The notes under the pieces: model-generated
Seen by the model: the letters and a program-made list of their open reading frames with translations, nothing else
Database searches by the model: none
Told to the model about the DNA's origin: nothing
Assembly: GCA_902586695.1 (NCBI GenBank)
Contig: CACIIL010000005.1
Coordinates: 1-58,280, forward strand
Length of the DNA stretch: 58,280 nucleotides
Direction of reading: 5' to 3'
Source of the DNA: an uncultured Alphaproteobacteria bacterium
Lineage (GTDB): Bacteria; Pseudomonadota; Alphaproteobacteria; HIMB59; GCA-002718135
In this document: positions 2-3,749 of the stretch, one piece after another
Layout of the letters: every line of letters begins with the position of its first letter
How positions within the stretch are numbered: the stretch's first letter is position 1
Program-made: the position numbers and the translations under genes

Positions 2-409
2 GAAAAATTAGATTCTTTTGATAGATTTTTTGAAAAAATTATTAAAGAAATAAATCAAGAAAATAAAGAAATAGAAACTATAATTAAAGATTTTGAAAAA
101 GAGTTTAATTCTTTTAGCGATGTCTCTAATGTTAAAAAACCATTAAAGAAAGCTAGGAAGTTACTAAAGAAAAACTTTAATAATAAAAATGAAGCAATTG
201 AACTTATTATTGAATCTAGGATTATTTTGAATGAAGAAATTGAATGGCGACTACATGGGAAAAAATTATTTTTAAATGATTTAATAAAATTAATTGAAAG
301 TGGTAAAGAAACTTTTGCATTAAGAAAACAAGATCAATTAAATCGTGAGCAAGCGTTATATCTAGCGAGATGTAAATCTAAACCTAATGATATATCTTTA
401 TATTTTTAA
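2..409 (+). CDS. Unrecognised protein, C-terminal part (5' end outside window)
   Basis: The frame is open from base 2 to a TAA at 407-409, giving about 135 residues of a protein whose start lies upstream of the window. An internal ATG at 227 is not a convincing start, because the frame upstream is equally open and has the same codon character. The visible part is rich in Lys, Glu, Asn and Ile and looks largely helical. Its last 60 residues contain motifs such as IEWRLHGKKLFLNDL and REQALYLARCKSKP. I do not recognise the family. The 3' end overlaps the convergent methyltransferase gene by 4 bases. No signal or membrane segment is visible in this part. Confidence 0.6.
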   Translation, partial: EKLDSFDRFFEKIIKEINQENKEIETIIKDFEKEFNSFSDVSNVKKPLKKARKLLKKNFNNKNEAIELIIESRIILNEEIEWRLHGKKLFLNDLIKLIESGKETFALRKQDQLNREQALYLARCKSKPNDISLYF

Positions 410-1521
410 ATAATTTTTTCTATATCCATAATTACATGAACATAGTCCATAGAATGTCCTTCTGGATTGTTTGATACTTCATCAATGTACAAATCATAAA
501 ATTTATCAACTATTTCATTAACTTCCTTTGCAGTTCTATTAATTAATGCATTTTTAAAAACAGTCTCAGACCAACTTCTCATAGTGGGAATTAAAGTATT
601 TGCATAATCGTTAGACGACATAGATTCTTTATTATTTAAATAATAAGTTTTATATGGGCAATCTGTTATCATTGTTTCACATGATTTTAATATTAAACCA
701 GATTTTGAAACTAGAGAATCTTTGTCATCAAATGGTTTCTTAAATTCTTCAATAGTTCGATAATGTTGAGTGAATGTTGCATTAATAAATTCTTGATTGG
801 TAATTATGCCTTTATCTTGAAGATATTTCCAGTTCTTAGCAAAATTATCAAACATGACTTTTCCACCCGTATTACCTAGGCATCTTCCCTGCTCATCTAT
901 ACCAAAATTAATGCATACAAATCTTCCTCCATTAATTAATTCTTTGGATCTATTTAATAATATAATTTCCCAATCTTTATGAGCTTGATCTTTAAATAAT
1001 TGTTTTTCACGTTCATTAGCTCCAGTCATGTGGACGTGGTTCTCAATTAAGCAAGGTCTTTCAGAAACATAATGCATTGCAGTAGCTGAAAAACCTAAAT
1101 TTAAAGAATTATTTGACATTAATTGATCATGAAAACCAGTTCCACAACCATGAACGTAAATATTTGAAAAGTTTTTTTGAAAAGCAAACTTAGTATTTCC
1201 TTCCATTCCTTGCATAATCTTAAAAAGTGTAGAAAAATCATTTGAAGCTAAATCAGTATACAAAATTTCTATTTGTCTATCGTCTCCTTTTTCTCTAATT
1301 AATTTTATAATATTACTCCACATCTCTTGACTAGTTCCACCGTCAGCACTTCCAAAATCTGCAAATCTTAAAATATCTTTTGAGGGAATAGTTTTAATTG
1401 CTTCTTCAATTACTTTTTGAGTTTTATCAATAGCATTTTTTGCTCCTGCTGTTTTAGCAGAATAATAACCTGATCCTTTCATTGATAAACTAGATTGAGT
1501 ATTTAAATAATTATTGTTCAT
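406..1521 (-). CDS. SABATH-family SAM-dependent carboxyl methyltransferase
   Basis: A 371-residue protein resembling the Methyltransf_7/SABATH family, best known from plant enzymes that O-methylate the carboxyl groups of salicylate, jasmonate or indole-acetate. Visible family landmarks are a GSGYYSAKTAG segment at residues 17-27 (the SAM/substrate-proximal N-terminal motif), the glycine-rich SAM loop FADFGSADGGTS at 53-64, YTDLASNDFSTLF at 88-100 (plant consensus NDLPxNDFNxLF) and the acceptor-site strand LGFSATAMHYVSERP at 142-156. The plant Ser-x-Ser-x-x-Trp motif is changed to Ala-Thr-Ala-Met-His-Tyr, so the substrate cannot be read by analogy. No signal peptide is visible, so it is probably cytosolic. 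It stands alone, 35 bases upstream of the parC end and convergent with the unknown gene on its other side. Confidence 0.85.
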   Translation of the reverse strand: MNNNYLNTQSSLSMKGSGYYSAKTAGAKNAIDKTQKVIEEAIKTIPSKDILRFADFGSADGGTSQEMWSNIIKLIREKGDDRQIEILYTDLASNDFSTLFKIMQGMEGNTKFAFQKNFSNIYVHGCGTGFHDQLMSNNSLNLGFSATAMHYVSERPCLIENHVHMTGANEREKQLFKDQAHKDWEIILLNRSKELINGGRFVCINFGIDEQGRCLGNTGGKVMFDNFAKNWKYLQDKGIITNQEFINATFTQHYRTIEEFKKPFDDKDSLVSKSGLILKSCETMITDCPYKTYYLNNKESMSSNDYANTLIPTMRSWSETVFKNALINRTAKEVNEIVDKFYDLYIDEVSNNPEGHSMDYVHVIMDIEKII

Positions 1522-1556: not shown

Positions 1557-3749
1557 TTAACTGTTAAATTTAAGATTTTTATTAAATCCTTTAGGTATTT
1601 TTTTTCCTACTTGAGCTCTTTTACCAATCCAGAAATCAATATCTTTTAAACTTTTTAATTTTGAACCTTTATTCCAAAAAAGACCTTCCTTAAGATCAAA
1701 TAAAGAAGTATCAATAATACAATCTTTTTCCTTAATTTTCATTAATTGAACCCCGGCTCCTTTATTTAAGGTTGGTAATATTGATGTATCAAAAATAAGT
1801 AATTTTTGATTTTTTGAAGTCATAGCAAGATGATCATTTTTATAATGATGTACATTTAAAAGTTCATCATTATTTTTCAGATTAATTATATTTTTACCTT
1901 TTTTTTGATTAGTAATCATATTTTCTGATATCGAAATAAAACCTTTGCCAAATTTAGTAATAAAGATTAATTTTTCTTGAGTATTTGCATTAAAAACAGC
2001 AATTAATTTTTCATCTACACCAACATTTACGAGTTCAATGTAAGATTTGGGGTTAGCTTTACCTCCAGGTAATAAATTTGGATCCAAAGTCATTACTTTA
2101 CCTGAAGATAAAAAAAGAAGTAGCTTATGATTGGATGAGACTGGAATAGCCTTACTAATATCATTATTATTCTCTTTATTATTATCAGAATAATCTTTTA
2201 CTTTTTTAAGAAGATTATTTTTGCTTAATAAAACATTAAATTTCTCAATTTCAGTAAATTCATCAATTTTAATATCTAAATCATAATCATCATTAGTATT
2301 AACTATACTTCTTCGTAATTTTATATTTTCATCTAATGAATCAGTTATATCGTTTGTTTCTTTCATTATAAATTTGTTAAGATAATGTTCATTATTTATT
2401 AGTTTTTTTAAATTAGTATTTAATTCTTTTAATTTTTTAATTTCTTTATTTATATTAAATTCATCTAATTTTTTTAAAGAACCTAATCTCATATTTAGAA
2501 TAGCATCAGCTTGAATTTCTAATAATTTAAAAACTTTAATAATTTCTTTTTTTGGATCTTCTTTATTTCGTATAATTTTTATAATTTTATCTAAATTGGC
2601 AAATACAATTAAATAGCCTTTTAATATTTCTAATCTTTGATTATTTTTATTAATATTAAATTTAGATTTTCTCTTAATTGTAGTTTTTCTAAAATCTATA
2701 AATTGAGAGAGTATGGACTTTAAACCCAATTGCTTAGGTATGCGTCCTTTATCAAGAACATTAAAATTACAAGAATATTTTACAGATAAATCAGTTAATT
2801 TAAAACATAAATCAACTAATTTATTTTTATCAATATTTCTATTTTTTGGCTTAAGAATAATTCTAATATTTTCATCTGATTCATCTCTTACATCATCAAG
2901 TGGTAATTTTTTTAAATTTATAAGGTTAGCCAGCTGTTCTATAATTTTAATTTTATTAACTTGGAAAGGAATTTCAGTAATAACTATTTCATACATTCCA
3001 TTTTTAATTTTTTCATCATGCCATTTTGATTTTATTAAAAAAGATCCGAACCCTTTTTTATATATATTTTTCTTTTCTTTAGGATTTAAAATTATTTCTC
3101 CACCTGTAGGCAAATCTGGTCCTTTAATATGCTTTATCAATTCAGAGTCAGAAGAATTAGGTTTTTTTATAAGCTGAATTATACATTCATTTAATTCTGA
3201 TAAATTATGTGGTGGGATATTTGTAGCCATTCCTACAGCTATACCAGAGGCACCATTCAATAGGATATTTGGTAACTTAGATGGAAGAACATCTGGTTCT
3301 AAGTTTTGGCCATCATAATTTTCACTAAAAGTAGTAGAGTCCTCTTCAATTCCATCGAAAAATAATTCTGTTATTTCCTCAAGTCTAGCTTCAGTATATC
3401 GCATAGCAGCTGCATTATCTCCATCTATATTTCCAAAATTACCTTGTCCTTCTATAAGCGTAACTCTTGAAGAAAAGTCTTGAGCCATTCTGACTAAACT
3501 TTGATAAATAGCCTGATCTCCATGAGGGTGAAATTTACCCATTACATCACCTACTATTCTTGCAGATTTTTTAAATGATGAATTATTAAAAAGTTTTAGA
3601 AGATACATAGAATATATTATTCTTCTATGTACTGGTTTCAAACCATCTCTCAAATCAGGAAGGGATCTAGAAATGATTGTAGATACAGCATAAGACAGGT
3701 ACCTAGTTTTTAGAATATCATTAATATTATCTTTTATTATATTTTTCAT
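1557..3749 (-). CDS. parC: DNA topoisomerase IV subunit A
   Basis: A 730-residue GyrA/ParC-type subunit that breaks and rejoins DNA through a catalytic tyrosine; with ParE it decatenates daughter chromosomes. The N-terminus has SRSLPDLRDGLKPVHRRI at about residues 27-44. The quinolone-pocket region GDVMGKFHPHGDQAIYQ is at 67-83, and the active-site Tyr118 lies in AAMRYTEARL. A coiled-coil tower region follows at roughly 350-470. The C-terminal third has weak blades and lacks the clear GyrA-box, which favours ParC over GyrA, as do its length and its position next to recO-era-rnc as in other alphaproteobacteria. It is the last gene of the minus-strand run, one base after recO. Confidence 0.9.
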   Translation of the reverse strand: MKNIIKDNINDILKTRYLSYAVSTIISRSLPDLRDGLKPVHRRIIYSMYLLKLFNNSSFKKSARIVGDVMGKFHPHGDQAIYQSLVRMAQDFSSRVTLIEGQGNFGNIDGDNAAAMRYTEARLEEITELFFDGIEEDSTTFSENYDGQNLEPDVLPSKLPNILLNGASGIAVGMATNIPPHNLSELNECIIQLIKKPNSSDSELIKHIKGPDLPTGGEIILNPKEKKNIYKKGFGSFLIKSKWHDEKIKNGMYEIVITEIPFQVNKIKIIEQLANLINLKKLPLDDVRDESDENIRIILKPKNRNIDKNKLVDLCFKLTDLSVKYSCNFNVLDKGRIPKQLGLKSILSQFIDFRKTTIKRKSKFNINKNNQRLEILKGYLIVFANLDKIIKIIRNKEDPKKEIIKVFKLLEIQADAILNMRLGSLKKLDEFNINKEIKKLKELNTNLKKLINNEHYLNKFIMKETNDITDSLDENIKLRRSIVNTNDDYDLDIKIDEFTEIEKFNVLLSKNNLLKKVKDYSDNNKENNNDISKAIPVSSNHKLLLFLSSGKVMTLDPNLLPGGKANPKSYIELVNVGVDEKLIAVFNANTQEKLIFITKFGKGFISISENMITNQKKGKNIINLKNNDELLNVHHYKNDHLAMTSKNQKLLIFDTSILPTLNKGAGVQLMKIKEKDCIIDTSLFDLKEGLFWNKGSKLKSLKDIDFWIGKRAQVGKKIPKGFNKNLKFNS

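What the first reader, a model, noticed from the sequence alone, without database searches (positions are those of the whole stretch)
406..1521. Plant-type SABATH carboxyl methyltransferase in a streamlined bacterium
SABATH enzymes are known mainly from plants, where they methylate hormones and volatile precursors. Here a complete copy sits among housekeeping genes of a compact genome, so it is likely useful. The acceptor-pocket motif differs (SATAMHYVSERP instead of the plant Ser-x-Ser-x-x-Trp pattern), implying a different carboxylic acid. In a marine bacterium it might make a volatile or signalling methyl ester.
Basis: partly seen in the sequence, partly recalled or inferred. Interest (0 to 1): 0.6.

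Follow-up and report, generated by a model that had tools for sequence, protein, structure and literature searches.

The report
Bacterial carboxyl methyltransferase beside acid transporter
A real, intact relative of plant SABATH methyltransferases sits in a streamlined ocean bacterium, but it belongs to its own alphaproteobacterial branch with an altered acceptor pocket, and it travels with a transporter whose binding protein looks built for small keto or hydroxy acids, so its substrate is probably such a polar acid rather than a plant-like volatile.

Summary
The gene at 406-1521 is real: a 371-aa ORF on the minus strand, matching Pfam Methyltransf_7 over its whole length (E 3.8e-34), under purifying selection, with conserved SAM-site motif residues. 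It is not "plant-type". With 54 relatives it forms a supported alphaproteobacterial clade apart from plant SABATH enzymes and from mycobacterial fatty acid O-methyltransferase (FAMT), the nearest solved structure. Its motif change is real (Trp->Tyr), but Tyr/Trp alternate within the clade. The sharper difference is loss of the Gln aligned with SAMT Gln25, replaced by Ala in 33/33 clade members, together with many invariant polar residues. In its genus it follows parC and is convergent with an unusual TRAP transporter (880-aa DctM with a ~330-aa tail). In another lineage the order is an operon, dctP-dctQ-dctM-MT; 23 of 23 methyltransferase-positive genomes of that order carry the tailed DctM, against 55 of 113 negatives. 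The receptor keeps all six residues with which TakP binds sodium-pyruvate. Best reading: a carboxyl O-methyltransferase for a small polar acid, possibly a 2-oxo or 2-hydroxy acid handled by that transporter. The substrate is untested. A volatile or signal ester is unsupported. New variant of a known kind.

The parts
406..1521 (-). Carboxyl methyltransferase gene (Methyltransf_7, alphaproteobacterial subfamily), 371 aa
   Evidence: ORF; Pfam PF03492 E 3.8e-34; purifying selection; clade 100/99
2..409 (+). 3' end (last 135 codons) of an ~880-aa DctM (TRAP large permease) with a long soluble C-terminal tail; convergent with the methyltransferase, stops overlapping by 4 bases
   Evidence: 71% identical to residues 747-881 of the DctM of locus L016; the remainder (residues 1-649), DctQ and DctP lie at the end of contig C12 of the same genome
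1557..3749 (-). parC (topoisomerase IV subunit A), 35 bases upstream of the methyltransferase on the same strand
   Evidence: NCBIfam TIGR01062 over its cut-off; same order in loci L014-L022
3751..9209 (-). recO, era, rnc, lepB, acpS and RelA/SpoT-family genes: the conserved gene run that ends in parC and the methyltransferase
   Evidence: RecO weak, E 2.2e-5; synteny

Best explanation
The gene encodes a cytoplasmic, SAM-dependent carboxyl O-methyltransferase of the Methyltransf_7 (SABATH) superfamily, from a distinct alphaproteobacterial subfamily. It is probably the last gene of the RelA/SpoT...parC run. It most likely methyl-esterifies the carboxylate of a small polar acid. The best guess is a 2-oxo or 2-hydroxy acid, or a direct product of one, taken up by the adjacent TakP-like TRAP transporter with a tailed DctM. 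The ester would mask the charge and change the fate of the acid (disposal of an inhibitory acid, or a first catabolic step). Shown: gene, family, conserved SAM-site motif residues, subfamily and its characteristic residues, physical linkage and co-occurrence with the tailed TRAP, conserved keto-acid-binding residues in its receptor. Inferred: carboxyl O-methylation as the reaction (from the family), the substrate class, and the physiological role.
For: Family. SAM-site motif residues kept: D55, G57, D90, N94/D95, F130. Subfamily: 55 rows, 100/99. Pocket: the residue aligned with SAMT Gln25 is Ala in 33/33, whereas it is Gln in FAMT, SAMT, LAMT and IAMT (alignments) and in the six other bacterial rows; K/R at 28 (32 of 33), invariant H150, H162, N205, D209, Q252, Y254, R315, W317, D359, H362, which suits a polar, possibly anionic substrate. 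Linkage: methyltransferase beside tailed DctPQM in its genus and as the operon dctP-dctQ-dctM-MT in the g231 genomes. Co-occurrence: 5/5 against 0/18 in the genus and 23/23 against 55/113 in the order of G438, including genomes where the two are not adjacent. DctP: all six residues that bind Na+-pyruvate in TakP (Y100, Q156, R177, E214, W215, E240; PMC1839085) are conserved.
Against: Substrate not tested. The tailed TRAP is commoner than the methyltransferase (55 MT-negative genomes carry it), so the transporter does not need the enzyme. The plain TRAP of MT-negative genus members keeps the same six receptor residues, so they do not single out the methyltransferase's acid. In its genus the two genes are convergent, not in one operon, and co-occurrence is inflated by shared ancestry. 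In other lineages the gene has other neighbours (gamma-glutamyltranspeptidase, CoA ligase, RraA aldolase, M19 dipeptidase, Ldh_2, isochorismatase), or none of these. The structure model is weak (pLDDT 55.6), so the pocket was read from alignments only.
Confidence: 0.4

Rival explanations
1. It is a fatty-acid O-methyltransferase like the mycobacterial enzyme and makes fatty acid methyl esters.
For: Closest solved relative by sequence, profile and fold is FAMT 5f2k/5f2n/5f2o; an acyl-CoA dehydrogenase lies beyond the TRAP genes.
Against: It sits outside the FAMT branch, lacks the Gln shared by FAMT and plant enzymes, and has many invariant polar residues absent from the FAMT-type rows. The acyl-CoA dehydrogenase is also found downstream of parC in MT-negative genomes, so it is not linked to the enzyme.
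Confidence: 0.15
2. One reading: it makes a volatile or signalling methyl ester of an aromatic or hormone-like acid, as in plants.
For: Family membership only.
Against: Separate from plant enzymes; Gln25 equivalent lost and Trp151 equivalent replaced; linked to a TakP-like receptor, not to aromatic metabolism.
Confidence: 0.1
3. It is a housekeeping or repair enzyme that methylates an inhibitory by-product acid (works like trans-aconitate methyltransferase, different family); its place next to a TRAP gene is historical.
For: It lies 35 bases behind parC with no terminator found; it is absent from many close relatives without disturbing parC; neighbours differ between lineages.
Against: Does not explain why all 23 methyltransferase-positive genomes of another order carry the tailed TRAP, adjacent or not.
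Confidence: 0.2
4. It methylates nitrogen or another non-carboxyl atom, as the caffeine-type N-methyltransferases of the same family do.
For: The family contains N-methyltransferases; such chains are among the fold matches.
Against: Nothing in the neighbourhood points to purines or other N-acceptors.
Confidence: 0.1

Closest known systems
Mycobacterial fatty acid O-methyltransferase (FAMT; PDB 5f2k, 5f2n, 5f2o; Methyltransf_7)
   Same: Same Pfam family and length, SAM-site motif; nearest solved relative (258 bits with the clade profile).
   Different: About 20% identical in the fold match; separate branch; Gln and Trp of the acceptor site are Ala and Tyr here; different set of invariant polar residues.
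Plant SABATH enzymes (SAMT 1m6e, IAMT 3b5i, LAMT 6c8r)
   Same: Same Pfam family; D55/G57, D90, N94/D95, F130 conserved.
   Different: Form their own branch; SAMT Gln25 and Trp151 are Ala27 and Tyr151 here; 138 bits or less with the clade profile.
TakP-type TRAP transporter (receptor 2hzk/2hzl, 2-oxo-acid binding)
   Same: The neighbouring DctP matches it at E 1e-69 or better and keeps all six Na+-pyruvate ligands.
   Different: DctM carries a ~330-aa soluble C-terminal tail and DctQ a long N-terminal extension compared with the plain TRAP of relatives.
Trans-aconitate methyltransferase (Tam)
   Same: Works-like comparison only, from general knowledge: a bacterial SAM-dependent enzyme that esterifies a small polar carboxylate.
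   Different: Different methyltransferase family; no Tam-family hit for this protein in Pfam or NCBIfam.

Membership tests
Methyltransf_7 / SABATH superfamily (PF03492) | Match to the family profile over the curated cut-off and over the whole domain | tested here: met
   118.8 bits against 29.8, positions 5-332 of 335
Methyltransf_7 / SABATH superfamily (PF03492) | SAM-binding motif residues (D-x-G of motif I, D of the ribose motif, NDF, S/T-F) | tested here: met
   D55, G57, D90, N94, D95, F96, F130 conserved
Methyltransf_7 / SABATH superfamily (PF03492) | SABATH fold (Rossmann core with alpha-helical cap) | tested here: inconclusive
   The top 26 fold matches are SABATH chains, but the model is weak (pLDDT 55.6; TM about 0.5)
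Plant SABATH carboxyl methyltransferases | Gln and Trp that hold the carboxylate (Gln25, Trp151 in SAMT) | tested here: not met
   Aligned residues are Ala27 (33/33 in the clade) and Tyr151 (24 Tyr, 9 Trp); the role of the SAMT pair is from general knowledge
Plant SABATH carboxyl methyltransferases | Falls within the plant branch | tested here: not met
   Alphaproteobacterial clade of 55, 100/99; plant enzymes form their own branch (only three plant sequences, two of them partial)
Fatty acid O-methyltransferase (FAMT) | Falls within the FAMT branch | tested here: not met
   FAMT groups with plasmid rows L036/L037 (100/98), apart from the clade of 55
Any SABATH enzyme | SAM-dependent methyl transfer to a carboxyl (or N) acceptor | not testable with these tools
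   Needs purified protein

The most novel reading that the evidence does not exclude
A transport-coupled methyl-ester pathway: a SABATH subfamily with a rebuilt polar acceptor site works together with a tailed TakP-like TRAP transporter to capture and esterify a small 2-oxo or 2-hydroxy acid in marine and other alphaproteobacteria. To my knowledge this chemistry has not been described.
Probability: 0.28. Interest if true: 0.65.

Novelty: new variant of a known kind. Interest (0 to 1): 0.45.

Why it matters
SABATH-family enzymes are studied almost only in plants; the full-text searches made here returned no paper on this bacterial branch, though subscription literature is not covered. A branch spread over several alphaproteobacterial families, with a changed acceptor pocket and a transporter partner, gives a direct way to find a bacterial role for the family and a specific hypothesis for an acid used or disposed of by ocean bacteria.

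Tried and rejected
Phages and viral contigs: no relative, so no sign of viral cargo. Recent transfer from plants: rejected by the tree. Conserved role with gamma-glutamyltranspeptidase, suggested by the neighbours in other orders: not supported for this organism, since its genome, about 75% complete, has no such gene. The acyl-CoA dehydrogenase as partner: rejected, because it is present without the methyltransferase. An early in-script label 'valS' for the 881-aa neighbour was wrong; it is DctM. Promoters and terminators: no more than chance.

Full report
Observation. The window has a 371-aa ORF at 406-1521 on the minus strand. It matches only Pfam Methyltransf_7, over nearly the whole profile, at E 3.8e-34; no NCBIfam model matches it. 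It is single-copy in its genome. Orthologues with 70-100% identity exist in other marine single-cell genomes and MAGs, some titled Pelagibacterales SAG-MED31 or MarineAlpha5. Genome size and these titles suggest the AEGEAN-169/HIMB59 group, but I did not test that name directly. dN is about a tenth of dS. The gene is real and under constraint.

Surroundings. Upstream on the same strand, 35 bases away, is parC, the end of a run of RelA/SpoT, acpS, lepB, rnc, era, recO and parC genes; no terminator-like site separates them, so co-transcription is likely but not shown. Downstream, with stops overlapping by four bases, a convergent gene ends: it is the tail of a DctM TRAP permease. The window's contig is broken inside that gene; the first 649 codons, with DctQ and DctP, are at the end of contig C12 of the same genome. 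The full unit was read in L014, L016 and L019-L022: DctP about 368-372, DctQ 307-325, DctM 880-885 aa. This DctM has a soluble C-terminal tail of about 330 residues that the ordinary 457-aa DctM lacks.

Presence and absence. In the sampled genus 12 of 37 genomes have the gene; most of these genomes are incomplete. Twelve MT-negative genomes were inspected downstream of parC: ten have an ordinary TRAP set there (the DctP is not covered in every stretch) and two have no TRAP between parC and the acyl-CoA dehydrogenase. Of 23 genus members searched with the tailed DctM, the five methyltransferase-positive ones have it and the 18 others do not. None of the 24 genomes of the sister family, including a closed one, has the methyltransferase. 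Identities of the methyltransferase and of ParC fall off in the same order, so the gene is probably as old as the genus and has been replaced repeatedly at this site. The receptor gene is 99% identical to that of L016, while the other genes of the stretch are 72-92% identical, which suggests recent exchange.

Relatives. The family is rare: 13 of 385 genomes spread over the class and 4 of 398 in the phylum sample. A tree of 65 rows puts 55 alphaproteobacterial rows in one clade (100/99), apart from plant SAMT/IAMT/LAMT and from FAMT with two plasmid rows. Long branches and partial plant sequences limit what can be said on the deeper order. The window's group is a 14-row clade beside seven rows of another alphaproteobacterial family, f110 (95/84).

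Pocket. By alignment to 1m6e, SAMT Gln25 and Trp151, which I recall as the carboxylate-holding pair, fall on Ala27 and Tyr151. Ala27 is in 33 of 33 clade members, Gln in all six other bacterial rows; Tyr151 alternates with Trp (24:9). Position 28 is Lys or Arg in 32 of 33; H150, H162, N205, D209, Q252, Y254, R315, W317, D359 and H362 are invariant in the clade, and most of them are not conserved outside it. This speaks for a shared, polar acceptor across the clade. Which residues line the pocket is inferred, because the model is weak.

Partner. In g231 genomes the gene is the last of a dctP-dctQ-dctM(883)-MT operon. In the order of G438 all 23 methyltransferase-positive genomes carry the tailed DctM against 55 of 113 negative ones (Fisher p 5e-7 without correction for kinship); this includes g110 and f240 genomes, where the genes are apart. 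So the enzyme is nested within the range of the transporter. The DctP is TakP-like (E 1e-69) and keeps Tyr100, Gln156, Arg177, Glu214, Trp215 and Glu240, the residues that bind sodium-pyruvate (PMC1839085). The plain TRAP of MT-negative relatives keeps them too, so they give a substrate class, not a specific acid. Other lineages add gamma-glutamyltranspeptidase, a hydroxyacid-dehydrogenase-like gene, GMC oxidoreductase, CoA ligase, RraA-like aldolase, M19 dipeptidase, Ldh_2 or isochorismatase. These look catabolic; gamma-glutamyltranspeptidase was not found in the window's genome, which is about 75% complete.

Interpretation. Enzyme class (SAM-dependent methyltransferase of Methyltransf_7): about 0.95. 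Carboxyl O-methylation: about 0.8. Small polar acid as acceptor: about 0.5. A 2-oxo or 2-hydroxy acid tied to the TRAP: about 0.3. These figures are judgement, not computed.

Noticed in passing
window 1557-3749; G037-G050: Genomes of the sister family, including a closed 1.4-Mb one (G037), gave only GyrA-like matches to the window's ParC; topoisomerase IV may be missing or very diverged there.
   Followed up: no
window 2-409; L016:9113-11758; L087:8606-11257: DctM with a ~330-aa soluble, coiled-coil-like C-terminal tail is common in another alphaproteobacterial order (78 of 136 genomes); the role of the tail is unknown.
   Followed up: partly
L068-L079; L014-L022: The stretch between parC and the acyl-CoA dehydrogenase is a replacement site in the genus: tailed TRAP plus methyltransferase, plain TRAP, or no TRAP.
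   Followed up: partly
L164:2502-3620: The DctP of the window's genome is 99% identical to that of L016 while other genes of the stretch are 72-92% identical, a sign of recent exchange of the receptor gene.
   Followed up: no
L035:12001-14396: On a Rhizobium plasmid a 40% identical relative is followed by a DAO-type FAD oxidoreductase and preceded by a B12-binding/radical SAM-like gene, amid transposases.
   Followed up: no
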